From the NCBI GenBank assembly GCA_020055645.1, contig CM034546.1:13454001-13518000 (forward strand): a stretch of 64,000 nt of DNA. The letters run 5' to 3'. Positions 10,410-56,808 of the stretch are shown one piece after another. The stretch's first letter is position 1. Each line of letters starts with the position of its first letter. Position numbers and translations under genes: made by a program. The stretch is from Tomocerus qinae. Its lineage: Eukaryota > Arthropoda > Collembola > Entomobryomorpha > Tomoceridae. The notes under the pieces were generated by a model. It made no database searches. It saw only the letters and a program-made list of their open reading frames with translations, and was not told where the DNA came from.

Positions 10410-13400
10410 AAAATCAGAGGATTAGCGATTGCCGGTGGGCTAATTTCCATTTCACTTTCTACTTAAAAATGTTATCAGTCGCTGCAAATGGATATACTCG
10501 ATCTGCGCTTAGAAAACAATTAGCAACATTTTGGAGTTTGTTTAAAATATTAAGGACACATACTTTCAACAACAATTTATGGTTCCACAAGCGTTCTAGA
10601 AAAAGAGTAAGAAAACAGCCAAATATGCAGTATCCACAAACGAAGAATATGGTATGTACTTTCACTGTAAGTTTATAGGCACAGCTTCAGATTCTTTATA
10701 CTTGAGTTTTGCGTTAAATATTATATCCTCTAAAATTGTCCAAAAATTCCAGTGTTGTCGGTAATATAATAGAAAACCTCTTTCTTGCATGAATTGAAAA
10801 TAAGATGGAAATGCTTGACGACAACAGTTATCGAATTCATAAGAATACGGTTCCAAGATATCTGTTTGCTTTACAGTCATGCAGACTCCACTAGCAGACA
10901 TTTCTGATGGTATTAATGGCACGCTGAACTCACCTTCCTCTTTGGGAATTAGACTAAATAGTTTTTCCCTATATGAGGTTAATAATTTCCATTTAAATTT
11001 CCAAATTTTCATTATTTTGTCCTCAGATGTTGCATTGGTTTCAAAATTAAATTTGTATACACTCGAATTCATTTTATCAAGAATTTTATATTTTTCAAAA
11101 ACTTCTTTTCTGTCTTCATCTAAACCTCGGTTTTTATCTTTCAGCCACACTAGCTTAAAATTATGTTTTATGAGGTCTTTAAAATCCACAAATTGTTTTC
11201 TATCGGGAGGTGCAATAATCTCACTTGTTATCCACGTTTCATATTGAATAGCAATTATAAATCCAGTAGACACAATAATTAAGTACAAAATGTTTTTCCC
11301 TTTGTTGAAAACATCCTGATTGAAAAGGACTGCTATAGTATGTATAATAATGTACTCGAATCTCTTGTATAAAGATGGAATTCTGAAGCTCAAAACATAA
11401 AATGAAATGGGGAATAGTGAGAAAATCAGCCACCAGCAATAATCATCAAATGTATTTTGAATCAGAACTGTCAAAGGGATGTCAAAGAAACGAAGATTAG
11501 GTTCACAGTAATACGGAATATACTCTTCAAAGTATTCAACAAAAAAAGACTCATTCCAACTCATTTTATAAGTTTCCATTTTGTTACTCAGCAATCCTAT
11601 GGTTCCGCAGCGTTTGTGTTTCTTTTCAAGAAATTTATACCTTCTAGCATAAACAACAGTAACGTTAAACCTTTCGGCTAATAATTCAACGGCCCTTACT
11701 GTGCTAAGACAAACATAATTTATTTTTCTTGTTAAGTACAACGATTTCCTGCATTCTGACATTTGTTTAACACCACTATGTCGTACTCGTGAATAATAAC
11801 CACCAATTTGTATCCCATTAAGATTACCGTTCAATGTTTTCCAAATCCTTTCCCATTCCTTTTCGGAGCCATGCGTGTCAATTTGATGCAGTACTAAAGA
11901 CTTATTACTATCATCAGGATTGTACAAAATTGGCATGTAAATTGTATATTTATTCTCAATGTCCATTGCGAATATAAATAGAGGAGCTACCAAATTGTGG
12001 ATGAGGTTTGATTTCCACGTAGGATTCATTTGCTTCAATTTATCTTCGATGATAATTATAAATCTCGAGTCATGACGATTTAATTCTCTTCCAAAAGGAA
12101 TATATTCCAAAGTAGGATCTGGTTCCATTAGAATATTTACAGAACAAAGATTTTTTGAAAAATCTCGGGGATTATTATAATGTCTACCAAAGTCGGATAG
12201 TTTATATCCTGATCTTGCCAGTGTCCAGGTTTGGCCATTCTGATTGGATAGCATAAACTCTGTCTGCCACTTGGATTGATTAAAAGTGACAATGTTAAAA
12301 TCACAATCACTATAAAATGACAAATTTCGAAAACATTGGACATCGGTGATTATGATATTAATTAGAAGTACTTTTAATAGATACCTGAAATCCTTTTTAA
12401 TATGCATTGTTTTACTATGCATATATATCTCAGTCCATAGACATGGAGATCACTTTTCTAAAAACTAAACTTAACTTGCCTAGAATTTAAAAATCAATAA
12501 ATATGGCTGATATATTATGATGTAAATATTAATAATGCGCAGATTTAAAACTTTTGGTTACCTAAACCATTCAGATATTCCGCACATACCCAAACTTCAA
12601 AATTAATTGCTACAGTATCATATATATTTGCTTGTATTCTTATCTCGTTGATTAATTTGAGTCCGCAGTGGTCTATAATATAATGGTAGTGGTGTTTTAA
12701 ATGTATTTTAATGTATAGGTGTAGTTGCCTGGCCCAAACATAAGTTATACAAATAAACTGGCCGCGAGAGCTATTTCCGGAATTGTGAGCTATAGGTTAA
12801 ATGTGCCAAATGTTTCAAACTTCGAATCGATATGGACAGCTCAGAGTCCAAGTCAGACTAACTGTGGTAACCACGGATTTAAATATTTTAGAGGAGCACG
12901 ACGAACGAATAATATTATGTTTAAGACAAGGAAGGACGAATGTGACCAACAGTGTTTGATTATCCATCGGGTAATGGCTTAAATGGTAGTTGCTAATATG
13001 GTTTTTAACTTGGCTAAAACTAAAACCCAAATAAAGTTGTCCATTTACTTTATTTATGTAGCAAATTTAGCCACTCTAGCTAATAAAAATGGCCTCCTGG
13101 CTGGCTAAAATGTAAAAAAAAAGTGTAGACTATAGGCTATCATTATCTAGCATTTAAGGCACTATAAAACTGAAAATATATAAAATTACAAGTATGTGTT
13201 ACAAAAATAGGGGTCATTCACTGCGTTGGCCAAGTAGAAATGGGCATTTACCTGCCTTTTCGGGCTTCAGCTATAATTTATAATGTGATCATTATTAATA
13301 CCTAAGTATTTAGAGTTATCCGGAAAGGAAGGATTTGACGAACTAAATAAAGTACCTCATTGAAAATTCTGAGAACAGGTGTATATGATTCAATGATTCA

Positions 13401-16201: not shown

Positions 16202-19200
16202 CTACTTTTCATTAGTTGCTGCAAATGGATATATTCGATCTGCGCTTAGAAAACAATTAGCAACATTTTGGAGTTTGTTTAAATTATTAAGGACACATAC
16301 TTTCAACAACAATTTATGGTTCCACAAGCGTTCTAGAAAAAGAGTAAGAAAACAACCAAGTATGGAGTACCCACAAACGAAGAATATGGTATGTACTTTC
16401 ATTGTAAGATTTATAGGCACAGCTTCAGATTCTTTATACTTGAGTTTTGCATGAAATATTATATCCTCCAAAGTTATCAAAAAATTCCAGTGTTGTCGGA
16501 AATATAATAGAAAACCTCTTTCTTGCATGAATTGAAAATAAGATGGAAATGCTTGACGACAACAGTTATCGAATTCATAAGAATACGGTTCCAAGATATC
16601 TGTTTGCTTTACAGTCATGCAGACTCCACTAGCAGACATTTCTGATGGTATTAATGGCACGCTGAACTCACCTTCCTCTTTGGGAATTAGACTAAATAGT
16701 TTTTCCCTATATGAGGTTAATAATTTCCATTTAAATTTCCAAATTTTCATTTTTTTTGTCCTCAGATGTTGCATTTGTTTTAAAATTAAATCTGTACACA
16801 CTCGAATTCATTTTCTCTAGAATTTTATATTTTTCAAAAACTTCTGTTCGGTCTTCATTTAAACTTCGACTGGAATCTTTCAGCCACACCAGCTGATATT
16901 TATTTTCTATGAGGTCTTTAAAATCCACAAATTGTTTTCTATCGGGAGGTGCAATAATTTCGCTTGTTATCCACTCCTCATATAGAGTAGCAATGAAAAA
17001 TCCCATGGCCACAATCACCAAGTATAAAATGTTTCTCCCTTTGTTGAAAACATCCTGATTGAAAAGGACCGCTATAGTATGTATAATAATATACTCGATC
17101 CTCTTGTATAAAGATGGAATTCGTAAGCTCAAAACATAAAATGAAATCAGCCACCAGGAATAATCATCAAATGTATTTTGAATCAGAACTGTCAAAGGGA
17201 TGTCAAAGAAACGAAGATTAGGTTCACAGTAATACGGAATATACTCTTCAAAGTATTCAACAAAAAGAGACTCATCCCAACTTATTTTATAAGTTTCCAT
17301 TCTGTTTCTCAGCAATCCTATGGTTCCACAGCGTTTGTGTCTCTTTTCAAGAAGTTTATATCGTCTAGCATAACCAACAGTAAAGTTAAACCTTTCGGCT
17401 AATAATTCAACGGCACTTACTGCGCTACGACAAATATAATTTATTTTTCTTGTTAAGTACAACGATTTCCTGCATTCTGACATTTGTTTAACACCACTAT
17501 GTCGTAGTCGTGACTAATAACCACCAATTATTATCCCATTAAAATTCCCGTTCAATATTTTCCAAATCCTTTCCCATTCCTTTTCGGAGTCATGAGTGTC
17601 AATTTGATGCAGTACTGAAGACTGATTACTATCAGGATTGTACAAAATTGGCATGTAAATTGTATATTTATTCTCAATGTCCATTGCGAATATAAATAGG
17701 GGAGCTACCAAATTGTGGATGAGGTTTGATTTCCACGTAGGATTCATTTGCTTCAATTTATCTTCGATGATGATCATACGTCGGAATTTTATTTATTTAA
17801 AATCGCAAAAAATTTACACGAAAATTTACCAAAAAATGGTAAAAATTTTTCATAAAATTTTACCAAAAATGGCAAAAAATTTTTTATAAAAATTTACCAA
17901 CATGGCAAAAATTTTCTCTAAACAGTTTTTTTGATTTCGGCTAAAATATTATCTATAATATAACATTGAAAAATCAAAATCCAGAAACTCTACCTACCTA
18001 AATAATCAGGTGGTAAATAAGAACTGCATGTATTATATCATTTCATTATTGTACATTTAATCTTCAATTTTAAAATTCAAACTTAACATCTTAAAACATA
18101 TATATATTGCAATATTAAAATGTTGTCCAAGCTTGCCATCATAACATCATATACATTTTAATATTAAAATGTTGTCCAAGCTTGCCATCTTAACATCATA
18201 TACATTTTAATATTAAAATTTAATCTAAACTTAATATCGAATCTTAACTTCCTAAATTCCAGGCCAATTTAAAATCGGATATTAATACGTTAAAATGCAA
18301 TTCAAACGTAATATCCTCCATAGTATCTTAATTCTTAAATTTAATTTTTAAAATTGAAATTAAATAAAGTCAACAAAACGGGCAAAATTACACCCATGGC
18401 AAAATCATATGGATAAATAATAAGGTGAAACCATTGACATTTCAATATTTTCCATACTCATTTTTTGTCGCCGTGGACTCAAAAATGCCTGGTGCATACC
18501 AAAACATTACAACAATAATTGGTATGATAAAATAAATTCAATCGACAAGAAATAAAGGCGGAAATTGTCAGTTTTACTTTCTGCATATTGCATTTTTTCT
18601 TGTAATTCAAGTCTAACTACAGCCACCCTAAAGTAATGCTTGAACGCCCCACTTAACCTTGGTCACTGTAGACTTATTGAAAAGATAATTTATGCAAATG
18701 CATTTATTTTATTGCAACATTTTCATTTTGAGAATTTTGAAAAATAATTTGAACATACAATATTCTGGAAATTGCCAAAATATTTTCTTAAGATTTTTTT
18801 ATGCCGAAAATTTTATGTAAACTTTTTTTATATAAAAAAAATTTACTAAAACTTTAAATTTTTTTATAACTCAAAAGTGTAAAAAAGTTTACTAACACTT
18901 TTATATTTTTGAAATCCTCAGTGCATGATTCGTGTAGATACGAAGTCTCAGAACTCTATGAGAAGGCTGTAAAAATTTTACTTAAATAAAATTCAGACGT
19001 CTGATGATGATTATAAATCTCGAGTCATGACGATTTAATTCTCTTCCAAAAGGAATATATTCCAAAGTAGGATCTGGTTCCATTAGAATATTTACAGAAC
19101 AAAGATTTTTTGACAAATCTCGGGGATTATTATAATGTCTACCAAAGTCGGATAGTTTATATCCTGATCTTGCCAGTGTCCAGGTTTGGCCATTCTGATT

Positions 19201-21108: not shown

Positions 21109-21381
21109 ATCGTCTGCTTAATATTACAAGGTAACAAGCCATTTTATCATGACTGCTACAAAGTAACAAACCATTTTATCATGGCTGAGACAAAGTAACA
21201 AACCATTTTATCATGACCGCGACAAAGTAACAAACCACTGTATCAGGAGTTAGGTTTGTTACCTTGTCGCAGCCATGATAAAATGGTTTGTTACTTTGTC
21301 TCAACCATGATAAAATGGTTTGTTACTTTGTAGCAGTCATGATAAAATGGCTTGTTACCTTGTAATATTAAGCAGACGATA
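21109..21381. mobile_element. Hairpin element with internal repeats, inserted after the duplication
   Basis: The ends are ATCGTCTGCTTAATATTAC and its reverse complement. Each arm holds about three copies of an approximately 40-bp unit containing AAAGTAACAAACCATTTTAT. Copy 1 of the duplication is uninterrupted at this point (near 15225), so the insertion is younger than the duplication. Confidence 0.75.
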
Positions 21382-22455: not shown

Positions 22456-25400
22456 TTATTTATGCCGTTTCAAATGATTGACCAATGCCTGAGGGCTCCA
22501 ACAGGTGACAAAGCACAAATGGCATTGATTCTCATTGGTAACTTCGAACACTTTTTTATTTTCCTGACTGTGCTCCAATCTCACGTGGTCGTTTAAATCC
22601 TCCTGGCATGAGTATTTAACTCCACAGCGTTTACACTCTAAAATTGCATCAGAATTTCCAACTTTTTCCATTTCTTTGGTTTGAGGTTGAATATGGACAC
22701 TATTATTATTGTCATTGATATCAAGACGAGATTCAGGAGTGAGGCAAGGCATATCATGGTAGACTGATGAGATAGCATTCTGTTCCGGAGTAATACCCGA
22801 CTTTTTTGGTGATGTGCATGAGTGCATTTTTCGTTCTTGTTTGGAAGGGAAAGTCGATTGACATTTGGAGCAAAAGAAGATCGGCTTCAATTTGTGAACA
22901 TTTGTACGGTGTCGATTAATCCTCCACTGATCGCTGCTGTGGTATTCGCACATTTCACAGCTTAACATAACAGGAGGTTCAGTATATTGGTGCTCTGCCT
23001 TCAAATGCCGACGAAGATTAATTTCTGGGGCCTTGTAGTCACAAAAATGGCACTCGTGGATACCCTGTTCATTAAAATGCATCTTCAAATGACGAGAGAG
23101 TTGAGTTTTATCGCGAGCCTTGTAGGAGCAGAAGGAGCAGTCATGCATTTGTTGACCCAAATTGTGAACCACTTTCATATGAATTGGCATCCGATATGCC
23201 TTGCCTCGGAAGTCGCACATTATACACTTTTCAAGTTCCCTATTTTCTTCTTCTTTTGACGGAAACAAAAGTGCCTTGACCTCTTTTCTCTTCTCAACAG
23301 TTGGAAACTGCGGAGGAAACCACACTACTGGGTCCTCTTCACTTATATCGTACACTCTGAAAATATTAATTATTATATTGCTAACCCAACCCAAGTAATA
23401 ATATTAACGATCTAGTAACTAAACATAAAATAAGTAATTGTCTGGGTAATTACGGAGGAGAAGGAGGAATATCTCGAGCGAATTCCAGTGTATTTGGGAC
23501 TTCTGTCGTCTCAAGAGACGTTGGTAATTGCAGGGTATCCCACTCTTGGTCTTCATCACTGACGTCATATATTCTGAAATAATTAATTGTATACTATATT
23601 ATATACTATTAAAATCCACATTACCAAGAATATACAATTCTGATGGGGGCTAGATTCTATATGACGGAAGGAAATAATTCTTTCGGCATTACCACCGTTC
23701 TTAAAGTGAATGAGGCATGACTGTTTTTACTTTTGTTACCAATTGACGCGAATGAATTTCGTAAAATTAATTTCACTTTACGAAAAACATACTCAAAATT
23801 GAAGTCTAAGGAAAAAAGTTTCGAAAAATGTCAAAAATTTAGCTTCCTTATAATAATTGAGAGAGAAATACAAGTTGGAAAACTCTTATGGGATTTAATA
23901 CGCATCATTCGTCTGGTAAAATCTAGCTTCTAGATGACCTGCTATTTAAATCACGAGAAAAGCTAAAAACACGTAGCAAGAATATTTAACGGTTGGTGAA
24001 TATAACTATTTCTTCTTTGTATAGTCATTTATGAAAAGAATCATTTAATAACAATAAAAACCCCAAAATGATACTTACAAAGGAAAACTGTCCTGTTGAA
24101 ACTGACTTATATTTTCCATTGCCTCACAATTAATTGGACCTTGTAGAAGATTCGGTTGCAATTTATCTTCGCCGGTATGGTAGTTACTGTAATAATACAA
24201 ATTTTGTGAAAACTTGCTCAACAAAAATATTGTTTTAGTAAACTTACTGTGGAGTAGGAAGATTTTCCCCTGGGTGAAGTTTTCTAACGTGTCGCTTCAG
24301 GTTATTACAATATTTCGTTCCGAAATTACAATATTGGCATTGATAAGTTTCAGGTCGTTGAGGATGCATTTCAAATTCCATGATTTGACTCTCTTCTTTT
24401 ACATTCATATTATATGGATGCTGGGGACTCATTCTCATCAGTTCATTCTCATACACACTAGGCGATTGCGAAACATTTGGCACTGAGTCATCCATACTGT
24501 CATCTCTGAAATACCAAATGCAACTTAGATAAAACTCAAAATGTCAGAACATAAAATATCACAAAATCTAAAGGAATTTATGATACAAACATAAAATCCC
24601 ATTTTCAAACAATTCATTTTTAGTTAGGATTTTCAAATCACAAAATGTATTTTGAATTTCTTTTACTCTAATATGTACCCATCTGTTTACCAATATTAAT
24701 TTTACATCGTGGAAATTTACACGAAATAGAGTATCAATATTAGACAGACAGAGAGAAATAGTATTTGTATACAGAGAAGATGAACTTTTCTGAATAATTA
24801 AGAAAAAATAGCAGTATCGTCACTTACAGTTCTATAACGTCTAATGGCTCGTGTCCCTTTGCATGTTTTTTAAAGCTGGACTTATCACTGGTCACGTACT
24901 CACACAAATTGCATTGCCAAAGAACCGTAGAAGTTTTTATCGCCTCCATGGTTGGAATATCAGTTCCAGTTTGTTCGTCTTCTGACGAAAATGAAGATGA
25001 AACACTCATCCCTATCTCCGAAGTCCCACTTCCGATTGATATATGTGAATTCGTTTCTGACTCTTCATCGTAATTAAAAACCCTGAAATACCGTTTGAAA
25101 AATTGTGGTTATTATTTTCTGGTAATGCGAGATTTTACAATTGGGCTTTTAAAAGATTAAGGGGATTTTACGAGAACCAGGACCACAAAAATATATCCAA
25201 AATTATAAGAGTAAAATCGAATGTGTGGGGACAAATCTAATTAATTTTATAATTCGTGATTGATACTTACGGCATATAAGTAAGATCCGTCGGATCGTGC
25301 CGTTTCTCATGCCTTTTAAAATTGTACTTGTCATTTGTTGCAAATTCACAGAAATTGCACTGCCAAAGAAGTGTCGCAATCTCAAGTTTGCTTCTTGAGT

Positions 25401-28400
25401 ACTTTAATTTACTTTCCTCTTCTGAATGTACCTCGTAATCATATCTTTCGTAAGTAGGCTCATCTTCTGACAGAGATAAGAAAGAACTCAATCCATCCAT
25501 TTCTATTTCTGTGTCCTCACAAACAAGTGACAATTGTGGAGGATACATTTTTAGTTGCCGATCTTCGGGAAAATCGCCAATACTAAAACAAACGTAGTTT
25601 TAAATGCAATAATTGGATTTTCAGGCACTATAGACAAATAATTAATTAATTAAAGATAATTACCGAACATCATCAGGCTCATTTGGATGATGACTCTTAA
25701 CATGTCTACTTATGTTGGACGGATAATTTGTCACATAATCGCAAAAGTTGCATTTGGTTTTCATATTGACAAAAGAATTATATTTGCTTTTCAACTTTTT
25801 TACTTGCGTCTGCTTTCTTTTTAGAGGAGAGTAGGCTACTGACGACAAAGTATTCTGAGGACTCATTCCCTCTGAAGTAATATCATCGTTCATTGATGAA
25901 ACTTGCGATTGTGCTGCAGTTGAATATTGTAATATGCTATCAACTCTGAAATATCAAGAAGTTGCTCATTATTCAGTTTAGCATGATACAATAAAATACA
26001 CTATGCATGTTGGATTGGAATTGGAGCAAATGGCAAACCCCACGATTATATATTTATACATTTCCCCCTCCCAATGTTTCATCCGATCTTAACCTGACGT
26101 GGCCAGGAGGTCAATATAGGGTGGGGATTAGGGAACAAATGCAATTTTAACAGATTTTGATAGATATCGACCTTCTGAAAAAACCCCACCCATCGAAAGC
26201 TCCTTTCCCCTAAGGGAAGTTCTTTAAAAATAGATTAGGCTAGGATTAGGTCTCCGTTATAATTATAATGAATTAATATAGAACTAGCGGTCCATATTTT
26301 GTGGGTATAAACAATAAAGCCGGTGGGATGTGTATGCCCCTAACACTTTTAACAGGGATGGGAATGAGGAGTGAGTGAGGAGTCCCTTGAGCCATTTCCA
26401 CCTGTCAATGTACGATATAAATGCATAATATGCTAATTTTTTCAAAGAACCCTTTTATGGAGTGTAAGAGGGTGAGGATGGGTGGGATTTCATTCAAGGA
26501 GTCGATATCTATCAAAATCTGGGAAAATCTCATTTTGCCCCAGACCCTCTCTGGGGGTGTGAAGTGGCCTTCAGGTCATGCCCAGTAAGTATCCGATGAA
26601 GATATAGTGATGCTGTGGGACTCGGCCATTTGGGACCCGTTTGCTCCAATCCAACTCATTATTGCAAGAAATTAAAAACATTTAAATATTTAGCATAGTC
26701 CTTACGGAGGAGTTGCAGAATGACCTGGATGTACTTTTAGCTTGTGTTTTCTTAAATTTCTTTTGTAGACTGTCACGAATTTGCATAGCTCACAAGGCCA
26801 AGATTTTAATGATGCCTTACTTATACGTGGCTTTTTAAATTTAATTTGATTCTGTACTTCTTGTTCTTTCAACTCCCTTTCAGCGGTTGCTGTCTTCTTC
26901 TCCGGAACAGTAAAAGGATATTCTGGGTGTTTACTTTGAATGTGACTCTTCAAATGGTACTCATGTATTGTATTGTATGAGCATAACTCACACTGCATTT
27001 TTAATTCAATTTTATTTTCTACTTCTTGCCCTTCCAACTCATTTTTGACCGTGTTTGTGTTTTCAGGAAGTGTGAATAGATATTTTGGGTGTTTACGTTT
27101 AATATGCCTCTTGAAATGGTACTTATTTTTTGTGTTGTATGTGCAGCATTCACATTGCAACAATATTTCAGGTTTTGCAGGTTTCTTTTGTTTATTTTTC
27201 GTTGGTTTCCCAATCCATTCTAATTCTCCAAAATCAGCTGTTGTCCCATTTTGCCAGTCTGAACACTGGGAACTTGACCCTTCCCCATTTCCTGTTGCTG
27301 AATTATCAAATTTCACTACCGGAAGATTTGACCCTGAATCGCTATTAGAGATATCCTCACTGAAATAATGATTACAAAATATTACATATTCCAACAATAA
27401 CCGATGTACTATTGATTGGGCCTTAGTAATAATTGTTAATATAAATACTTACGGCATGATAAAAGGAAAGTCATAATGCTGATTTTTGACATGATTCCTT
27501 AAATTGCGTTGATTATTTGTGACAAATTCACAGAACTCACAATCCCAAAACATTTTAGCTTCTTCCTCAATGCTTCGTTTGCTTTTCTTCCCCTTTCCTT
27601 GCCCCTCACCATGTTTTACATAGGATGTCTCCTCGTCTGACGAGTATGATGATTGGAAATTTAACATTTCGTCCACTTCCGCCTCATTAAGAAATGAAAA
27701 CTCGGGAGGATCTGTGTCTTCGACATTTAACCCTTGAAACGTGTGCTGTTGTGATCTGAAATAATAGTTAATAAACACTTGCATACGTTATTTAACAAAA
27801 AGTGGCAGGAATACAAGCGCGAGGTATTTACTACTTGGTTGCACTAGTTTAACCTCAGCTGTGAAATTAAAAATTAAGCCAAAATTTCATAATGTGAAGT
27901 GTCAACGAACTCAAATTGTGTACTGGTACACTCGTCTAATAAAATTTGAGTAAACTGTTGGCCATTTCTTAAACTGACAACTGTACTACAAATGGAAAAC
28001 CCAAACTTACGAGATTGATTCGGTATCGCCAGGATGAAATTTATCGACATGCATTTGGAGGTTTAGTTGGTTATTCGTCTCATATACACAGAAAGGGCAG
28101 TGTAAAAATATATTTGGAATATTTGATTGGCTTCGCGGAAATGACTTCTTTCTGCTCTTTGACTTTCTGCGCTGTCTTTCACCGTTTTCTTTTAAGCTAT
28201 TGTCAATCATGGGCGAAAACGGAGACTGGCTATTCTTTCGCAGTTTTCTTATCCCATGCATAATTGACAGCTGGGGAGGATTTGAGTCTTCACTTGCGTT
28301 ATCCGCTCTGAAAGAAATTACGAATTGAAAACATAAACTAGTTATTTACTATATATCTGTAACTATTGGAAATTTTAATAAATATTAATTGAATGCTTAC

Positions 28401-30603
28401 GAAGAATTGACTTTATGGACTCTTTTGACATGTCTTGTGAGTCGGTGCCCCACATTTGTCTCGTAGTTGCAATACTCGCAACGGTGAAACGTTTTTAATT
28501 GGTTTTCTTTCCTACGGATTCTGGCTAACTTCTTTTTTCTCAAATACGAGTACAAATAATGCATTCCCACAACTTTCTTTCCAAGTACATCATTTGAACC
28601 TGAAGCCTCGTTCCCATTTCTGTCCCAAAAACACATCAATTTAAATAAACATTTTCATGCCTTGTGGTAAGCATTTTTATAAATGAATTCTATTTACGAA
28701 GGAATTATCTCTGGATGGAGTCTTTCAACATGTTTCTTTAAGTTACGCTCTTCTTTCGTAACGTGGTCACAAAAATTGCACTGCCAAAGTACTTTGGCAT
28801 ACTTTCCTTTATTCCTTTTGGTTAATACTTTCACTTTAGTATCTTCTTTTTCTTTCATTTCCATTTTTAATGTCGGTATGACTTTTTGTTCTACTTGATT
28901 CGTATCAACTGCACTTTCCAATTCTAATTGAGGAAAGCCGTTTTCTTCAATTTGGTTAGTATCTTCTTCTTTAACTCCCTGTTCCAATTTTGGAGACACA
29001 TTCTTATTTAATGTCTTGCTGTTTCGTTCTCGACTCTTAGATTTGACCTTTGGTTTGACAGGGCTTTTACTTTTCGCTCTGCAATGTTCAAACGATTATT
29101 AAGTTAATTTTGGTATACTTTTCATATAAAATAATCTTAAAATTTAAAGTACATTGCAAATTATTTTTGAAGGGGGTTATGCTATAAAAAAATTTAAATT
29201 AAATTAATATTTTTGTATATCATTTTTTAAATTCAAATTACCGCATTTGAAATGAAAACAGTGATCTAGTGATCTAATACTTGAGAGATAACGGAAAAAA
29301 ATTTTTTTTTGGTAAATACATAAATAAAGTATCCGTTATTGCATTAAATATTTGTATAACTAAAAATTAGATTGCTTTCTAATTTAGATGTGACTAGCTT
29401 TTCATTTAAATAAAATAATAATAGGGTAGAAAATATTATAACCGTTCAGGGTGGAGGCGACTTAGATGTCTACTCAGATTGTATTCGTACAGAGTCTCGA
29501 AATCGCAAAGTGGGCACTCTAAAGCATTTTCCAGCCTATTTTTAGACTCCATTTTCTCAGAAAATTTGTTTTTAGGCTTCTTTTTCTTAACTTTTCCTTT
29601 CTTTCCTTTGACTGCACTCACTTTAATCTTTTTGCATTTTTTACTATCAGGTTTAACATCCACAATATCGAAATTTTGATCGTCTTCGTCAAAATCTTCA
29701 TCAATATCAACATCTTCCATATGGTCAATCCTATAGAAAAAATGTTCATGTTCCATTTTAACAATTTTAGTAGTTTATATTTTTGAAAATATTTTACAAT
29801 TTTAAGGTAGACGTCGAGAACATAACCCAACATATGTTACTTATTGCTGTATACTACACTTTACTATACTACTGTATAATAGAAAGAGTAAATTCTTACT
29901 CTGGAGCTTGGTCACCATCGTCAGCATGTCTTCGAATGTGTTTGACGAGAACAGACACGGTTACAAATTGAACATTGCAAAAGGGACATGGAAATTTATT
30001 GGCAGCAGGTGTGAACCCAAAAAGGTACAATTTATTTTCTTTGTCACAACTGGAGATATGGGTAAGTGCCTTGGCTCTGGAGATGAATCCTCTCTGACAA
30101 ACATAACATTGGAACGGTCGAATGGTCGTGTGATGCATTAGAATGTGTCCATTGAGCGTTTGCGAAGTGTTGTGTTTCTTATTACAGATCCAGCATTTGA
30201 AAGAATTTGGATTTTCATGGATCCATTTCATGTGGTTAGAAAGACTAATGTTGCGTGAAAATTTCTTTCCACAAATTTTGCAAATTGCCAGAGATCCTTT
30301 TTTCTTCGTTGGAGAACTTTCTTCTGCTTGAACACGTTCATGTTTCACCATCACTATTGGGGACAAGATGGGTTCCTGTTCCACATGACGATCATTTGTT
30401 CTTAATTTATTCATTACCTGTTGACAACCTTCTTTTTCGTGGTTTTTGAGTTCAAAATATTTCCCGAACATTTGATTGCAATTATTACACGGGTAAATCT
30501 TTGGATCCACCACCTTGTGCACAGTTTTTAGATGTCGTGCTAGACACCAAGAGCTGCTCGAATTGTAAGTGCACCCGGCCTCCAAACATTTGAAAACTTT
30601 CAT
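22456..30603 (-). CDS. Large multi-exon C2H2 zinc-finger protein (about 1,693 aa)
   Basis: Fourteen exons read on the minus strand: 30603-29900, 29730-29443, 29078-28698, 28619-28401, 28307-28011, 27755-27453, 27359-26706, 25945-25664, 25582-25271, 25082-24828, 24505-24248, 24186-24079, 23573-23454 and 23356-22456. Every intron is GT-AG and every junction is in phase 2, giving 5,082 nt. Exon 1 has six fingers (CKIC, CWIC, CYVC and CPFC types; two are C2HC-like). Exons 2-6 and 8-11 carry one finger each near their 3' end, exon 7 has three and the last exon about seven, roughly 25 in all. Linkers are acidic or Ser-rich (SEDE, SDEE). Exons 12-13 carry no finger. The expected role is nuclear nucleic-acid binding; the target is unknown. 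Exon 2 uses a GTTATA donor, and the shorter copy at 37.6 kb has GTTGTA at the same place. Alternatively some exons could be skipped in mature transcripts. Confidence 0.85.
26010..26654. mobile_element. Inverted-repeat element in an intron of the zinc-finger gene
   Basis: The left end TGTTGGATTGGA plus TTGGAGCAAATGG is matched in reverse complement by the right end (GTTGGATTGGAGCAAACGG). It occupies nearly all of the intron between exons 7 and 8. The interior has no coding frame. No clear target duplication was found. Confidence 0.6.
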
Positions 30604-34719: not shown

Positions 34720-36874
34720 TGACCCTTTCAGACAGATTTTATTTGATATAGGTAAATGTTTTTCCCGATGGCTTCCAAAATACCATTTTCCTGTCTCTAC
34801 ATGTGGGGAATGTCAATGGCAACAAACAACTTTCAGGAAAAAAATCATTTTTGACCCTGTCAGTAGTTATATGAAAAAAACCTCTTAAAAAGGAAAGCAA
34901 AATAACTTTTGAATCCCTGGACGGATTTTGATGAAACTTGGTATGGAGAACCGCCATAAGTATATCTCCAGAGGTATTTTGAAAGAGCAATAACGTTCCA
35001 GTTTTTCGATTTCAAAAGACCCGGCAGAGTTTAAAAAAGTGGGTTTTTTCGGGTTTTTACCAGAAATAAAAAGTTTTTTCGAACATCTGCTCGGTTCAAA
35101 TTAAAGAGATTATCAAACTACACATTGAGGGTATATCAAGTATTTCACTGTCAATGACCCCCGCCCGGTGTCAAATGTCAAAACTTGGTATTGTGAAGAA
35201 TTTCACCGTCTGAGGTATCAATCGAAAGCTAACAAGGACCCTGATGTCGCTAAAGCCATTATTTTGGCTAATAATGACCTCTAAAAGAGTTTACGGGTCA
35301 TATAATGCAACCATACTTAAACATAGATGTATCTGAATACTCACAAAATTGCGACATAATTCCGAAAAAACATGCACATTTCTGCATATTAAAGACTTCC
35401 ATGTGTCGTCTAACATGCTTTTGGATGTCATTCGGACATGAGAAAAGCGCAGGTAACAATTACGAATTCACAAACTAGGGTTATTAGTCACCATTAATTG
35501 TACAGTAACTCGTACTCAGAATCCAATTTAATGCATAGGCCCGTGCCCGGCCATGTGTGTACTTAATGCATGGAAGGAAATGATATTATGAATCGTCATT
35601 ATATATTGAAATTTCACTTACCTCCGACCCGGATTGGCATGTTAACGTGACAAATGACATTTAACGATATGTTAGATGACAGATTGTTGCGTTTAGTATG
35701 CAGAAATGTGTTATGTCGCAATTTTGTGAGTATTCAGATACATCTATGTTTAAGTATGGTTGCATTATATGACCCGTAAACTCTTTTAGTGGTCATTATT
35801 AGCCAAAATAATGGCTTTAGCGACATCAGGGTCCTTGTTAGCTTTCGATTGATACCTCAGACGGTGAAATTCTTCACAATACCAAGTTTTGACCTTTGAC
35901 ACCGGGCGGGGGTCATTGACAGTGAAATACTTGATACACCCTCAAAGTGTAGTTTGATAATCTCTTTAATTTGAACCGAGCAGATGTTCGAAAAAACTTT
36001 TTATTTCTGGTAAAAACCCGAAAAAACCCACTTTTTTAAACTCTGCCGGGTCTTTTGAAATCGAAAAACTGGAACGTTATTGCTCTTTCAAAATACCTCT
36101 GGAGATATACTTATGGCGGTTCTCCATACCAAGTTTCATCAAAATCCGTCCAGGGATTCAAAAGTTATTTTGCTTTCCTTTTTAAGAGGTTTTTTTCATA
36201 TAACTACTGACAGGGTCAAAAATGATTTTTTTCCTGAAAGTTGTTTGTTGCCATTGACATTCCCCACATGTAGAGACAGGAAAATGGTATTTTGGAAGCC
36301 ATCGGGAAAAACATTTACCTATATCAAATAAAATCTGTCTTCAGAGAAACTCGTTTGGGCGGAAAATTGTAGGAATTTACATTGAAAGAGTACGGAATTT
36401 TTAGAAAACTGCCTGTAACTTTTGATCTAAAAGAGTAAAGTAGCATATGTCAGCGAGTGGAAGTTGGCAAATTTAATCAGCTTTGCAAATCTGTAAAGCA
36501 CAAATTTCTACAATGTCTACAACTCAAATTATGGTCATTTTACCAAAACACCTTTTTCGACATGGGGGGAAAACAGTCAAATTTGTATTATTCATAAGTG
36601 TCGCTTCCCATCTTATTAAATCTAATGGCTATATTCTCCCCCCATATCGAAAAAGGTGCTTTGGAAAAATGACCATAATTTGAGTTGTAGACATTGTAGA
36701 AATTTGTGCTTTACAGATTTGCAAAGCTGATTAAATTTGCCAACTTCCACTCGCTGACATATGCCACTTTACTCTTTTAGATCAAAAGTTACAGGCAATT
36801 TTCTAAAAAATCCGTACTCTTTCAATGTAATTTCCTACAATTTTCCGCCCAAATGAGTTTCTCTGAAAGGGTCA
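34720..36874. mobile_element. Foldback element (about 540 bp) interrupted by a second foldback
   Basis: The ends are TGACCCTTTCAGA and TCTGAAAGGGTCA. Excluding the insertion at 34731-36339, the remaining sequence (34720-34730 plus 36344-36874) is an almost perfect palindrome with arms of about 250 bp. It is centred on CATGGGGGGAAAA and its partner near 36555-36650. There is no coding content. Confidence 0.8.
34731..36339. mobile_element. 1.6-kb foldback element with 4-bp target duplication
   Basis: The ends are GACAGATTTTATTTG and CAAATAAAATCTGTC. The arms are about 630-650 bp (34731 to about 35375, and about 35700-36339) and virtually identical, around a unique centre of roughly 330 bp. The 4-bp sequence TTCA flanks both sides (34727-34730 and 36340-36343). 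It landed inside the left terminal repeat of the 34720-36874 element. A related half copy lies at 6212-7715. Identical small open frames in both arms are a consequence of the palindrome. Confidence 0.85.
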
Positions 36875-37638: not shown

Positions 37639-39111
37639 TTACCAAGCGTCTGCAGGTAGGTGGTGTCTAATGATATGTTTACTTATGTTGAACACGAAAC
37701 TTGATGCGAACGGGCATAACTTGCATTTGAGTTTCATCAGCTGAAATTTATTATATCTGTCTTTCAGTTTCTTTAGTGATTTCTGCTGCTTCTTTAGAAC
37801 TTGGTTACTGTCCAATAAAGACAAGGAACTTTTTTGGGGAACTATTTTGCCTTTTGTAATTTTGTTCTGGGTTGAAAAGTGCTGATCAGCTGTTGAAGCT
37901 GAAACTTTGTTCAATTTTGTGGAAGGATCCCAGAGACTCGTACTCACGGATCCGTCTTTATGCAAAATGGTCAATTTTGGAAATATTGAGTTTTCACCAA
38001 TACTCACATTTACTTTAATATCACTTTGCTCAATTTTTGTTTTTGGAGACATATCCTTTAGCTTTTCTATTTTGACTCTGCGAAAAATAAAAGGCTTAAT
38101 ATTTTTAAATATACATTATTACGAGTTATACAACTAAGATACTAGGATGTTAGAAAATATTTACAACCTTTCATAACCATGAAGCCGTTCCACATGTCTT
38201 GTCAAATTGCCCTCATAAAAAGTTTTAAAATCACAAAGTGGACACTTTACAGCTACACAAGATTTACTTTTTTCTTGCCTTTTCTCAGTTTTAGTTTTGC
38301 TTTTCTTGGCATTGGTGTTGTCTTTGTTGTCATTATTTTTATTATCCAATTTATTTTGGTCTTCAATACTTTCATTCCTAATAATCCAAATGCATTTATT
38401 TTACGGTTTTGGAAATTTCAATTCAATTAGATATAGTATGACTTACTTATTTAATACATCTTGGCGGCCTTCAGCATGTCTTCCAATGTGTTTGGCGAGA
38501 ACAAAGATGTTTGTAGAGCGAAGATCGCAAAAGGGACATGGAAATTCGTTGGCCACTGGTGCGAGGTCAATTTGCTGTTTATTTTCTTTGTCACAACTGG
38601 AGATATGGGCAAGTGCCTTGGCTCTGAAAAGGAATCCTCTCTGACAAACATAACATTGGAAGGGTCGAATGGTCGTGTGATGCATTAGAATGTGTCCATT
38701 GAGCGTTTGCGAAGTGTTGTATTTCTTATTACAGATCCAGCATTTGAAAGAATTTGGATTTTCATGGATCCATTTCATGTGGTTGGAAAGACTAATGTTG
38801 CGTGAAAATTTCTTTCCACAAATTTTGCAAATTGCCAGAGATCTTTTTTTCTTCGTTGGAGAAATGGCTTCTGCATGAACACGTTCCACATGACCTTTAT
38901 TTGATTTTAATTTATTCATCATTTGTGGACAATCGTATTTTTCTTGGTATTTGAGTTCCAAATATTTTCCGAACATTTCATTGCAATTTTTACGTGGGTA
39001 AATCTTTGGATCCATCACCTTCTGGTGCACATTTTTTAGATGTAGTCCTAGACTCCAAGAATTGTTCGAATTGTAACTGCATGATGCCTCCAAGCATCTG
39101 AAAACTGTCAT
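37639..39111 (-). CDS. Short paralogue of the large zinc-finger gene (about 437 aa)
   Basis: Three minus-strand exons: 39111-38447, 38377-38168 and 38077-37639, with all junctions in phase 2 as in the large gene. Exon 1 is closely similar to exon 1 of the large gene, including long identical stretches around CKICGKKFSRNISLSNH. It lacks a linker segment, and the first Cys of finger 2 is lost (KIYPC became KIYPR). Exon 2 pairs with exon 2 of the large gene and shares its unusual donor (GTTGTA here, GTTATA there). Exon 3 most resembles exon 8 of the large gene (KKLKxxYNxF, then a finger ending NISKHIIRHH). It runs through a GTAATT donor-like site into TAA after ADAW. It is probably a partial duplicate with an internal deletion and may still be expressed. 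Confidence 0.75.
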
Positions 39112-40970: not shown

Positions 40971-42768
40971 ATGGATATTCAAAGTCACGCTGACAAATTT
41001 CTCCAGGTAATACAAGCAGTAATTATAATTTTTTTGCGGACAGGTAAATACATTTTTTTTGATAAATTTGTTTTTCTTTTTCCCCAAGTACTGCAATAGA
41101 AATGAAACTGCAAAAGCTGTGTCGTATCGGTTGAAAAATGTACTATCAGAAATATGGAAAAGTGACGATGACCCGGAGGATTCTTTTAACCCACTTCTTA
41201 TTCACCTGGTAAAAACTACATTAATATTCATCACTTGTTGTTACTTACTTAGTAGTATTGGATTAGAATGATTGTAGTTGTAAATTCTCAAACTAATTAC
41301 TTTGAAAAATCTATTTAATTTTTTAGAGCGATATCATTTAACAAAAACTGGCCTTCTTACGAATATCCTACAGGTGGTGAAAAACGTGGTCAAGTATCTG
41401 TCAGTGGAGGATTGTCGTAAATGTCGTCGTATTTGTCGGTTGTGGAATGCGGAGGCGGGTGCAAAGTTCAGACAGCAGACGAAAATCACCTTTTTTCCCG
41501 AATCCACAAAGAAGATGCGAGATTTCCTTTCGATGGCAGATGGAGAGAGAAAAGTCAGAGTAATAGGGAGTGACAATAATAATAGGCTGCCACCCTTTCG
41601 TGCCTTCTCGTTCACAGCTCAATTCGCAGGGACGGAATTTCCGAGGGAAATGCTGAAAGCCTTTGTATCCCTCTACGGGCACAACGTTAAGAGTCTGCAG
41701 ATCTTTTATCCTAATGACGGAATCCTCAGCGGCCAAGATTTTTATTGTTTTTTCGTCTTAGGGATGCCAAATCTGGAAAATATTCATTTCGTCAACCTCC
41801 CTCTTCTACTTACTTCACGTTCGTTTTTAAATAACATAAAGTCTGATGATAACAGCAATAATAAATGGGAGAGTGGAAGAAGATTAAGAATTGACCGATC
41901 ATGGGAGGTCGGGAATGGGTGGAAAGGCGACTTTGTGAGGGATTTGTTAAGCTTGACGCCCAAGTTGGAGGATTACGAGGTGTGGACGTGGAACTCGACG
42001 GAAGACAAGCACTCAGAGCCTTATTTATCCAATTTACCCTTATCAGTTAGGCAGTCCCTCAGGACTCTTCGACCAGGAGACGTGGGGGAGGAGTTAGGAG
42101 CGTTGCTCTCAGAAATGGACCTTCAACTTAGTAAACTTTTCTTACCTGTGCTCAATAAAGAGATTTCTCCAAAGACGCTGGAGACGCTGCTACGTAGCCA
42201 AAGTACCACTCTAAAGGAATTCCAGGTCAATGTGTCCTCTTTGCAAGATGCGAGATTCATTCAGTTCCCAATCCTTCCACGATTGACGCGCCTCCATCTC
42301 ACTATTACTTTCCCCTGGAATAATTCCCCAGTAGTATTTTCCCCTTGCCTTGACTACGCTGCACAACTCCCTGCTCTACGTCTACTCAAATTGGAACTGG
42401 CAGTACAAGAAGATGCAGAATTTGTCAAGTTTTTCTTTGACCCATCTTCAGTGTGCAAATCCCTGGAAGAACTGGACTTGAGTTTCACTGGATTCCGGGA
42501 GGATTCTTTCGTCCTCCGTCTCTCAAAGATGTTTCCAAATCTCGTAAGGTTAAGACTGGACGGCTATGGCCATCGCATCTTCTCATCTATCTTTTGTCAC
42601 CTGGAAAAGCTACAGGAATTAGAATTGGACCTTGTTTATGGATTCAACATTGACGATCAGCTGATCGGCATTCCCCGCGACTCACTCTCCAAATGTAAAA
42701 TTACAGACAGAGGAAAGTGCGAGCGGAAATTCCCTTCTCTCTCCGATCTCAGAAGTTGGTTGATATAA
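40971..42768 (+). CDS. F-box/leucine-rich-repeat protein (about 516 aa)
   Basis: Three exons, 40971-41006, 41089-41208 and 41374-42768, are joined by GT-AG introns in phase 0. The start ATG at 40971 gives MDIQSHADKFLQ and then a donor. Exon 2 ends in NPLLIHL and exon 3 opens with VVKNVVKYLSVEDCRKC, so the intron splits the F-box helix region (residues about 45-85, ending CRLWNAEA). The rest is a series of irregular leucine-rich repeats (LRLLKLELAV, LEELDLSFTGF, LVRLRLDGYG, LQELELDLVYG). Such proteins usually recruit substrates to SCF ubiquitin ligases through Skp1, with LRRs choosing the substrate; the substrate here is unknown. A second family member is at 55 kb. Confidence 0.8.
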
Positions 42769-44046: not shown

Positions 44047-46230
44047 TTAATCTGAAAAATTTTCTGCTTCTTCCTTAATCCAACTGTTATCTTCGGTTTT
44101 AATTTCAACAGTTATTTCTTCATAATCGCTGTTACCACAGTCTTCTCCAAAAGTGGAATCCTCGCTTTCTTCTGACTCTTCTTTGATAACGTGCCTTTTT
44201 TTGTTTGTAGTCCTACCACTTCTCCTAAGATTTGTACTTGAATGGGGTTTCAAATCAGAGTAAACTTTTTCATCAGTCTCACTGTAATCTGATTCACTGT
44301 TGCTATCTGGCCTTACCCTATCTGGATTTTTTGCTTTCTTCTTTTTACCTTTTCCATATACGCGTTTTACAGTACATTCATTTCGTATATGGCGATGTAA
44401 TTCTTTTCTTCCTAAATACGCTTTTTTACATAAACATTTGAAAGGATATTCTGACTCGGTGTGATTCCTGGTGAAATGGCAAATCATTTCGCATCGTGTA
44501 CGGAAACGTAGATCGCAAATTAAACATTGCATCCTAAAATTTCTAGTCTTGGTTGGGAAGACCTTTAAATGATTGCGAAATTCAACATGATCTGGATAAA
44601 CTTTCTCACAAATGTCACAAACCATATTGATGCCTGTAGATACAGAATGCATAGTTCTCTGATGGGTTTCTAAAGCATATTTTCTTGAGTAGGATCGACC
44701 ACAAACTACACATTTGAAACTATTCGGGATATCTCCACCTCTTGCAGCATATTTTGCATGGTAACGCCTATGCGTTTTGAATTCTAATAAGGTTTTGTAC
44801 AGTTTTCCACAAATGTCACAAGTAAAATCACTTTCATCAACATGTTTTAGTTTCATATGAAAATTCAGCCGGGCCTGAGTGCGGTAACTAGCCCCGCACA
44901 CATCGCATTGATAGTCTTTCTCCACATGAGTCAATTCGTGAGATCGTAAGTTTTTTTCCCCCACAAAAGTTTTCCAACAATGGGAACATTTGAATTTCTT
45001 TTCTCCGGAATGAATTGCTTCGTGCAGCCGAAGAGCATGATTTGTTTCACAAGCTTTTCCACAGACTGAACAGGTGTACAAAGTCCCGATTAAATGAACA
45101 GTTCTCATATGCCTTTTCAAGGTCGAATACAAACTAAAACATTTCGAACAAATCTCGCAGGTGTATCGGCGTCTTTCGTTTTCATCAGTACTATGTTGTC
45201 TCTTGTGTTTTACTAAATAACTCTTTTCTCTAAAGTTTTTCTTGCAAATATCGCATCCATACAGTTTTTCGTCACTATGAGTCGCCAAGTGCAGTCTTAA
45301 ATGATGAGGTAAAGAAAAACTCTTCCCGCAAATATCACATTTGTGTGGCTTTTCTCCAGTGTGAATTCGATTATGGGTATTTAATGAACCTTGACTCGAA
45401 AATGAATTTCCACAAGTCTCGCACTCAAATGTTTGTTGTTCGCAGTCATGCCGTTTTAAAATGTCTATCCTGGTGAACTTTTTATTGCATTTTGGACACG
45501 CATATCCGCCACTGTCACTTTGCAGCTGAAAATCTGAACTTGTCACTATTCCTTGGATAGGACCTGTTCAAAATAAATAATATTCAATGAAAATTTTATT
45601 CTGTATTCAAATTACGTCTAGAAAAATAATTAGCTTTTGAAACTAAAACTTACCACCACGACTCGATTTTCCATTTTTTAGTTTTCTTGTTGAGGTGTTC
45701 GGAATTTTCTTCGTCGTTTGCAGGGTAGTTTCTTTAGTGACATTTTGTCCTGGTTCAGTTAAGGTGGCATCCGGTAATGAGTCACGACTTTCGTTACTGC
45801 TACTTTGGAAATTCCAATCATCCAAATTTCCATCCACTGGTTTTGCTGTTTCCTGTCGTTGTTTATTTACATTAAGCAGTTTTCCATCTCCTTGCAAAAT
45901 ATTATCAGAAACCTGGGTATTTATCGGATGATAATTTACAAAGGTGCTTTGAAATTTTTCTTTTATTCGTGCAGTCAGCTGTTTAATTTCCATGTTGATT
46001 TGTTCCAGTTTTAAATCTAATTGAACTAATTGCTGAGCATTTTCTTCGCACTCTTCACAAAATGTATCTCCGTCAAATGGTAGATTCCAATGTATGATTG
46101 GAATATCTTGGGACAAGTACTTGTTACATTTTGATATAATTTCTTGCAATCCGAAAGCACTATTATAGGCCTTGTCTCGGTTAGGTAACCGGTGGATTGG
46201 GTTGGTACGGCAGAGCAGGCAGTGTCCCAT
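44047..46230 (-). CDS. ZAD-type C2H2 zinc-finger protein (about 697 aa, 13 fingers)
   Basis: Two exons, 46230-45654 and 45563-44047, are joined in phase 1 (GGTG/GTAAGT donor, TTTGAACAG acceptor). The N-terminus has paired cysteines CLLC and FCEEC with the spacing of a zinc-finger-associated domain (ZAD), which dimerises arthropod zinc-finger proteins. A polar linker follows. Thirteen tandem C2H2 fingers run from CPKCNKKF to CLCKKAY, with a classical TGEKPHKCDIC linker between fingers 2 and 3. The acidic tail has VEIKTED and WIKEEAE, matching the sumoylation consensus. The expected role is a DNA-binding nuclear regulator. It is unrelated in exon structure to the large zinc-finger gene at 22-30 kb. 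Confidence 0.9.
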
Positions 46231-54951: not shown

Positions 54952-56808
54952 ATGAACTTCTCTGCAATTACATTTACGTTCTGCACAATAGTTTATTATA
55001 TTGTTATGAATATGATAGATAAACTGAGCCATATAAGAAGGCAATGCTTAACAATGAAGATTATCGGCAAAATCATCAATGGAAGCAATGATAGTAGTAA
55101 CGAAAATATACCCGAAGGAAATAATTTGATAAATCCTACTTTATTCGGTCAGGTATGTTTGTTTTATTGTGTTTTATGACCTTGGTATTTAATTGGTCGT
55201 GTCATAATAGTTATTTCAATTGGAAGAAATTGATACAAATTTCTCAAAACTACCTAAAACTATTTTTAATGAGTATCAGTTTAAATGATTTATATTACAG
55301 CTGCAAATTTTTATTTCAAGGATATCGAAAATAGAGATCAAACAAGTATGATAAACCCTGTGCTACTTAGTCCGGTATGTTTTCTAATGCATTCAAAGTC
55401 AAACCATTATTTACTGTATAAATAGGAAGGTAAAACATACGTATAACCATTTTTTGATCATTTTAAACATGCAATTATTTATAATTAAAGCATGAATATT
55501 TTTAATAAGGTTTTAAGTGACATTTACCGATATCTGAATTTTCAAGATTTAAAAAACGGTCGTCTTGTGGCCTGGCAATGGAATGAAGAATCAAAGCTAC
55601 CTTTTAGAGATCGGTCGAAGATTGTCATAAAAAATTATAGGGAAGGGGACGTTAACAGCTTCACACTTTCCAAGTTTTCCAAAGATTTTCCGGGTCCATC
55701 AAATATTCCTTCATGTGCATTCAAACTTACAGATTGCAGAAGACCATTGCATGATGTAACAGAATTAACAGGTTGGAAAGTTAATGAGTTGAATGTATTC
55801 TTTGACAGAATACGAGGAAATTTAAAGGAATTAGAGCTAGATTGTATCTGTATGGAGTTGGAGAATGATAGGCACAATAGAATTAACCATTACGATATTA
55901 CTCCATGGATCTTAAGATCCCCCATGACAAATCCAAATACTGGAGACAATACCAAACTGACGGTAGTTTGCCTTCACTATGACAGTCGTACATATCTATC
56001 GGTTTCACTGTCTGCTCTAGTTGTTATAAAGGATATTTCATTGAGACATGTTTTGGTTAATTTTGACGATGCAGGCGAGTCTAAAATGAATCCTATTAAG
56101 TTAAAGCTAGAAGAAACCAGGTTTTGTTCAGGTAAAGAGGAAAGCAGTGGAGTTTGTATCAATGATGTTGTAGATTTTTCTAAGTGTAAAAGTGTTTATT
56201 TGAGAAATGGAGACAATGGGGAGACCAAAATCACGCTTGATTTGGGAAGAGACAAATCTGTAAGTCTTGACAAGCTCGAATTGGTAAATGAGATTGAGGT
56301 AGTCAATTGGGAGAAATCATCATGGAAAGTTAACGAATTAAATTTAGAGAAAGTACCACTTTTAGAAAAGTCCGGATTGCAAATTGTTAAACTAACTTGT
56401 AACGATTCTAAAATTGAGCTATCCTCTTTGCCACAATCAATTGAAGTTTTAAATTTGAAATTCGCGTGCATGGAATTTGTGAGATGTAGTAGCCCAATTT
56501 CATTACCGAATCTTGAGCATTTGCATCTAATTATCTTTGAGTCTTCAGCGTGCTGTCTTCTGTCTCACTTCCTACATTGCCCCAAACTATTTGAAACACA
56601 TATAACAGCACATCCCAGGTTATTGTCGGATGAAATAAGAATCAAATTTGATTGGGTTCCAAAAAGCGTTAGACTTCTGAAACTAGCTGACATGGACTCT
56701 ATTAAGTGGGAAGCAATAGAGGAAGGACAGCTGTCTCAAGACCAACTTCGGGTTTTGTCACTTTGCAAATTTGATCGTACCAGGCGCATTTGCGTTACGT
56801 CGAGTTAA
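54952..56808 (+). CDS. F-box/leucine-rich-repeat protein with duplicated 5' exons
   Basis: Exon 1 is 54952-55152 (67 codons, ending INPTLFGQ before GTATGT). Exon 1b is 55321-55374 (18 codons, ending INPVLLSP before GTATGT). The main exon is 55510-56808, opening VLSDIYRYLNFQDLKNGRLV, an F-box, and continuing through irregular leucine-rich repeats (LDKLELVNEIEV, LPNLEHLHLIIF). All junctions are phase 0. Including both small exons gives about 517 aa with a repeated NPxL motif; skipping exon 1b gives about 499 aa. The hydrophobic start (AITFTFCTIVYYIV) is unusual for this family. The expected role is SCF ubiquitin-ligase substrate recruitment. It is a paralogue of the gene at 40971-42768 with the same intron position in the F-box. 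Confidence 0.75.

What the first reader, a model, noticed from the sequence alone, without database searches (positions are those of the whole stretch)
22456..30603. Zinc-finger gene built from interchangeable single-finger exons, all in phase 2
I placed 13 introns by hand, and every one interrupts the codon after its second base. Each internal exon is therefore a multiple of three and could be duplicated, lost or skipped without breaking the frame. Most internal exons have the same plan: an acidic or Ser-rich linker followed by one C2H2 finger close to the 3' end. This differs from the usual single long finger exon in arthropod C2H2 genes. It looks like a modular cassette grown by exon duplication, and it could yield many finger combinations by exon skipping.
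Basis: partly seen in the sequence, partly recalled or inferred. Interest (0 to 1): 0.75.

Follow-up and report, generated by a model that had tools for sequence, protein, structure and literature searches.

The report
Springtail zinc-finger gene of repeated exons
A gene, probably from a springtail, carries a row of small exons, most encoding one zinc finger each and all cut at the same point in the codon, which looks like growth by copying one exon; whether cells mix and match the exons is unknown.

Summary
On the minus strand, 30603 to 22456, 14 exons join into one frame of 1693 residues with 24 C2H2-like motifs. All 13 introns are phase 2. Nine of 12 internal exons carry exactly one finger near the 3' end; E7 carries three, E12 and E13 none. 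A neighbouring UGT gene has introns of phases 0, 1 and 2.

Growth by exon duplication is supported: 7 of 78 linker pairs in the gene (fingers removed) are alike at p<=0.01, and E13 matches the start of E14 at DNA level through the acceptor. Uniform phase follows from copying a 2-2 exon, so it is not 13 independent coincidences.

New here: a three-exon tandem paralogue (39111-37643), also phase 2; and a second copy of the locus on another contig that keeps all 13 donors and acceptors, with pN/pS 0.25 for E2-E14 (0.38 with E1). E12 shows no constraint.

Skipping is permitted (0 of 91 pairings makes a stop) but untested; no RNA was available. In zebrafish piccolo b, the best precedent, copied exons are nearly all included. 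Two protein searches gave only distant C2H2 hits. A variant of a known kind.

The parts
29900..30603 (-). E1, start exon: six finger-like motifs, ends phase 2
   Evidence: Pfam zf-C2H2 2.2e-18
29443..29730 (-). E2, acidic then Lys-rich linker plus one finger; weak donor GTTATA
   Evidence: like exon in paralogue P2
28698..29078 (-). E3, linker plus one finger
28401..28619 (-). E4, linker plus one finger
28011..28307 (-). E5, linker plus one finger; linker like E6
27453..27755 (-). E6, linker plus one finger; linker like E5 and E9
26706..27359 (-). E7, linker plus three fingers; internal 168-nt repeat at 74%
25664..25945 (-). E8, linker plus one finger; counterpart of P2 exon 3
25271..25582 (-). 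E9, linker plus one finger; predicted folded finger, low-confidence linker
24828..25082 (-). E10, linker plus one finger; finger region 73% DNA identity to E9
24248..24505 (-). E11, linker plus one finger
24079..24186 (-). E12, 108 nt, no finger, doubtful or relaxed exon
   Evidence: good splice sites but pN 0.127, pS 0.161 against the C16 copy
23454..23573 (-). E13, 120 nt, no finger; resembles start of E14
   Evidence: 6 synonymous and 1 nonsynonymous change against the C16 copy
22456..23356 (-). E14, last exon: cassette-like start, six finger-like motifs, stop
38447..39111 (-). P2 exon 1, tandem paralogue of E1
   Evidence: 82% DNA identity over 700 nt
38168..38377 (-). P2 exon 2, like E2
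37643..38077 (-). P2 exon 3, 3' part like E8; reading on gives TGG TAA at the donor-like GTAATTA; no Pfam family at E<=0.01

Best explanation
This is one C2H2 zinc-finger gene, probably of a springtail, whose middle grew mainly by repeated duplication of a symmetric phase 2-2 exon that encodes a flexible linker followed by one finger. Because every copy begins and ends after the second codon base, each new copy kept the frame, which explains the uniform phase. Later events added fingers inside E7 and left E13, and E12 if it is real, without a finger. The most likely product is a single long, constitutively spliced protein: a finger cluster at each end and isolated fingers spaced along a disordered chain between them. 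Shown: anatomy, phase, similarity between some cassettes, the paralogue, and conservation in a second copy. Inferred: one transcript, inclusion of all exons, nuclear role.
For: Frame and phase. Linkers with fingers removed (E2-E13, first 45 aa of E14, two P2 exons): 8 of 105 pairs at p<=0.01 and 11 of 105 at p<=0.05 by 300 shuffles; 7 of the 8 are inside the gene: E5/E6, E6/E9, E13/E14, E2/E9, E5/E9, E3/E9, E12/E13; the eighth is E8/P2E3. DNA matches E9/E10 and E13/E14, the latter reaching 15 nt into the intron; repeat inside E7. Neighbours somewhat more alike, permutation p 0.048, driven by 3 of 12 pairs. All 12 fingers of E2-E11 fall in one group of the finger tree, local support 0.97, apart from those of the 44-45 kb gene; the group also holds E1_1, E14_1 to E14_4 and P2's two. 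P2 has E1-, E2- and E8-like exons, both introns phase 2. Copy on contig C16: 13 of 13 donors GT and acceptors AG; E2-E14 pN/pS 0.25; exon substitutions 52 of 3069 against intron 131 of 2313 in one block. Structure of E9: 22 of 103 residues at pLDDT >=90, in the finger; linker about 50-60.
Confidence: 0.7

Rival explanations
1. Combinatorial finger gene: exons are skipped in regulated ways, giving proteins with different sets of single fingers.
For: Every internal exon is symmetric and 0 of 91 forward exon pairings makes a stop. Ikaros isoforms differ in finger number by alternative splicing or deletion (PMC10813044, passages).
Against: No RNA evidence. In zebrafish piccolo b each copied exon was found in transcripts and skipping of only one was seen (PMC3484663, passages). 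Symmetry follows from duplication alone.
Confidence: 0.12
2. Truncation ladder: retained introns or early poly(A) end the protein after any chosen finger, because the phase 2 donor itself reads as a stop.
For: In 12 of 13 introns the donor gives a stop after one completed codon; in the thirteenth after two. P2 appears to end at the donor-like site matching the E8 donor.
Against: A phase 2 intron with a GTAA donor always does this, so it is a by-product. Of the AATAAA/ATTAAA hits, only three fall in introns (28379, 24049, 23899), all ATTAAA. P2 may be a truncated copy.
Confidence: 0.08
3. Two or more adjacent genes, for example E1 with a few cassettes and E14 as another, read here as one.
For: Frame cannot test inclusion because all internal exons are symmetric. 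E2 has a weak donor. An E14-like fragment lies apart from the rest left of the window.
Against: P2 links E1-, E2- and E8-like exons. The start of E14 resembles E13 through the acceptor. All junctions suit one frame.
Confidence: 0.1

Closest known systems
Teleost piccolo b zinc-finger exon amplification (PMC3484663, passages including the abstract seen)
   Same: One symmetric exon carrying zinc-finger sequence amplified 8 to 16 times in different teleosts; the author puts changes down to unequal crossover
   Different: Different finger type, split across the exon border; exons start and end in frame 0; 702-1350 bp in zebrafish; synaptic protein
Ikaros family (PMC10813044, passages seen)
   Same: C2H2 fingers spread over several exons, with isoforms that differ in finger number
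   Different: Four N-terminal fingers in exons 4-6 and two in exon 8, not a duplicated cassette array (the last point recalled); isoforms are documented there and not here
Drosophila lola and mod(mdg4) (recalled; only a search listing seen)
   Same: Arthropod zinc-finger genes with alternative exons of compatible phase (recalled)
   Different: BTB domain and alternative 3' exons (recalled); no BTB hit in the four G1 exons scanned
CTCF and ZFAT fingers (solved structures)
   Same: Best sequence matches of the cassette profile (CTCF 3.8e-9, ZFAT 2.2e-8)
   Different: Those are close tandem arrays (recalled); here the fingers of E2-E11 are separated by long linkers

Membership tests
C2H2 zinc-finger protein | CxxC...HxxxH motifs matching the Pfam C2H2 models | tested here: met
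   24 motifs; E1 zf-C2H2 2.2e-18 above cut-off; E7 and E14 each pass another finger model's cut-off; E10 passes none (four of 14 G1 exons scanned)
C2H2 zinc-finger protein | Folded finger | tested here: met
   E9 model: pLDDT above 90 in the finger; only E9 was modelled
ZAD or BTB zinc-finger proteins | N-terminal ZAD or BTB domain | tested here: not met
   No such hit at E<=0.01 in E1, E7, E10 or E14; an extra exon upstream of E1 was not sought
Gene grown by exon duplication (piccolo b kind) | Homologous exons in tandem, same phase at both ends | tested here: met
   Phase for 12 of 12 internal exons; homology beyond fingers for some pairs only
Gene grown by exon duplication (piccolo b kind) | Copy number differs between related species | not testable with these tools
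   No relative with the gene was found; only a short paralogue in the same genome
Alternative finger-exon genes (Ikaros, lola kind) | Isoforms with different fingers | not testable with these tools
   No RNA data

The most novel reading that the evidence does not exclude
A springtail gene that makes many zinc-finger proteins from one locus by choosing among about ten finger-bearing exons, with donors that double as stop codons giving shorter forms: a combinatorial regulator with isolated fingers on a flexible chain.
Probability: 0.1. Interest if true: 0.75.

Novelty: new variant of a known kind. Interest (0 to 1): 0.42.

Why it matters
It gives a clear case, probably in an early-branching hexapod, of a transcription-factor-like gene growing by copying a one-finger exon, where the window's other C2H2 gene has its fingers in one long ORF. 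With a short paralogue and a second copy at hand, exon gain and loss can be dated, and one long-read RNA data set would settle whether such symmetric exon sets are used combinatorially or are only a by-product of duplication.

Full report
WHAT IS THERE. The window is animal DNA, 29-38% G+C in 2-kb steps. A UDP-glycosyltransferase gene at 31.8-33.6 kb was searched: 1122 proteins at E<=1e-60, 120 listed. The first row is the springtail Allacma fusca (46% identity), and by my count 27 of the 120 rows bear springtail names (Allacma, Orchesella, Folsomia). Unnamed metagenome proteins are closer (75% over 72% of the query; 56% over 95%). Insects also appear, for example Hermetia in the second row at 38% and Bradysia at 46%. 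Allacma is a collembolan. A springtail source is therefore likely, not proved. The window lies on a 140-Mb contig of a 334-Mb genome.

THE GENE. On the minus strand, 30603 to 22456, 14 exons give one frame of 1693 residues. Introns are 61 to 760 nt. All 13 are phase 2 and all 12 internal exons are multiples of three. Nine internal exons have one finger near the 3' end, E7 has three, E12 and E13 none; E1 and E14 have six finger-like motifs each. Poly(A)-like hexamers follow the stop at 22421 (ATTAAA) and 22297 (AATAAA).

IS THE PHASE REAL. Generic recalled splice matrices were used. With both fingers kept, phase 2 gave the best pair in 10 of 11 finger-to-finger junctions, in two of them as the only phase possible; E7 to E8 had a higher phase 1 pair. 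A scan for symmetric exon-like units, its thresholds set after I had seen the model's scores, found 10 of 10 finger-bearing internal exons as 2-2 units. Ignoring fingers, the gene region (6.7 kb) held 5, 33 and 21 units of phase 0, 1 and 2 on the minus strand and 3, 6 and 4 on the plus strand. Control minus-strand stretches held 16, 31 and 41 in 22.0 kb and 4, 3 and 5 in 17.5 kb. No control 2-2 unit reached a score of 7, although three 0-0 and four 1-1 units in the first stretch did; in the gene region five modelled exons (E5, E6, E8, E11, E12) reached it. The UGT gene next door has one intron of each phase, read by eye.

WHY ONE PHASE. If one exon with phase 2 at both ends is copied, all copies share that phase, so the 13 are not independent. 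Similarity beyond the fingers supports copying: of 105 linker pairs (E2-E13, the first 45 residues of E14 and two P2 exons), 8 had shuffle p<=0.01 and 11 p<=0.05, led by E8/P2E3, E5/E6, E6/E9 and E13/E14; 7 of the 8 are among the 78 pairs inside the gene. About one of 105 would be expected at 0.01. Most pairs show nothing. At DNA level E9/E10 (73% of 79 nt) and E13/E14 (72% of 92 columns) match, the latter from 15 nt inside the intron, and E7 has an internal repeat. Adjacent linkers are slightly more alike than distant ones, p 0.048, through 3 of 12 pairs. In a tree of short finger sequences, all 12 fingers of E2-E11, P2's two cassette fingers, E1_1 and E14_1 to E14_4 group apart from the fingers of the 44-45 kb gene (local support 0.97), and E9/E10 and E7_1/E7_2 pair (0.90, 0.92). 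As non-cassette fingers are in that group, it may reflect finger type.

PARALOGUE. At 39111-37643 lies P2: a copy of E1 (82% over 700 nt), an E2-like exon and an E8-like exon, with both introns phase 2. Its reading ends at TGG TAA, at the site matching E8's donor. Two finger ligands of the second E1 motif are lost in P2 (aligned), and P2 exon 3 gave no Pfam family. dN and dS between the two E1 exons are 0.147 and 0.168 over 219 codons, so E1 evolves fast or P2 is relaxed.

SECOND COPY. The end of contig C16 (184 kb) is colinear with window 15.5-43.3 kb apart from insertions and deletions; matches of window 10.4-15.4 kb fall on the same C16 stretch and are repeats. All 13 donors and acceptors of G1 are kept there, and E3 and E5-E13 keep their lengths; E1, E2, E4 and E14 have indels, and E1 is broken in frame. 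Summed over E2-E14, changes are 34 synonymous and 36 nonsynonymous, pN/pS 0.25; over E3-E13, 30 and 28, 0.23. E1, left out of those sums because its alignment is full of indels, has 12 and 37; with it the ratio is 0.38. Exon substitutions are 52 of 3069 and intron 131 of 2313 in the block 23946-29356. E12 has 3 and 11, no sign of constraint; E2 has 1 and 6; E13 has 6 and 1. P2 is intact in frame in C16, with 34 and 61, ratio 0.43. In several stretches of C16 outside the gene, indels cluster where substitutions are almost absent, which looks like sequence error, but decay is possible. Leftwards C16 matches C1:13506112-13558000 (the end of what I fetched) at 99.4% in the opposite orientation, so it may be an allele, an inverted segmental duplicate or a misassembly.

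HOW IT MOST LIKELY WORKS. AlphaFold2 on E9, with eight other cassettes of the gene (E7 left out) and two of P2 as alignment, gives a confident finger and a low-confidence linker. The cassette profile matches fingers of CTCF and ZFAT best among solved structures. I infer a nuclear protein with two finger clusters and isolated fingers between them on a flexible chain. Single fingers so far apart should not read DNA as a close array; they may bind partners or add weak contacts. None of this was tested.

SKIPPING. Any forward exon pairing keeps the frame, and 0 of 91 makes a stop. Each retained intron would stop the protein within one or two codons, a property of phase 2 GTAA donors. These permit but do not show isoforms. 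In zebrafish piccolo b (PMC3484663, passages) each copied exon was found in transcripts and skipping of one only was seen. In Ikaros (PMC10813044, passages) finger-number isoforms are real.

RELATIVES. Two searches of 5.8 billion proteins gave 3 and 27 distant C2H2 hits. Springtail proteins are in that database, so a close homologue of similar length would probably have shown, but the word filter and length limits leave room for misses. In its own genome the E1-end plus E2 stretch matched only this locus, P2 and C16; searches with E1, E9 and E14 did not complete. An E14-like fragment lies about 1 kb left of the window.

VERDICT. Observation confirmed; duplication supported; combinatorial use unproven. 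A new variant of a known kind.

Noticed in passing
window 37643-39111, minus: Three-exon tandem paralogue of the gene (E1-, E2- and E8-like), both introns phase 2, ending at a donor-like stop.
   Followed up: yes
G000 contig C16:104520-184321: C16 matches C1:13506112-13558000 inverted at 99.4%, then switches to C1:13469507 onwards forward at about 85-99%: inverted duplicate, allele or misassembly.
   Followed up: partly
C1:13452652-13453145, about 1 kb left of the window, minus: Fragment 77% like part of E14 with a frame break, next to a reading that looks SET-domain-like by eye (recalled).
   Followed up: partly
window 34750-36350: Two long inverted arms, seen by eye, between P2 and the UGT gene; probably a transposable element.
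   Followed up: no
window 26137-26535: Inverted repeat, about 59 nt arms at 81%, inside intron 7.
   Followed up: no
window 21120-21370: Short direct and inverted repeats of a unit around gtaacaaaccattttatcatg, seen by eye.
   Followed up: no
window 10662-12449 and 16202-17513, minus: Similar long ORFs that look like ionotropic receptors (recalled); no Pfam hit for the first at E<=0.01.
   Followed up: partly
window 41284-42768 and 55489-56808, plus: Long ORFs that look F-box/LRR-like (recalled); the first has only a weak LRR_4 hit, the second was not scanned.
   Followed up: partly
window 44047-45567, minus: C2H2 ORF with ten fingers by pattern in one long open frame, a contrast to the gene studied.
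   Followed up: partly
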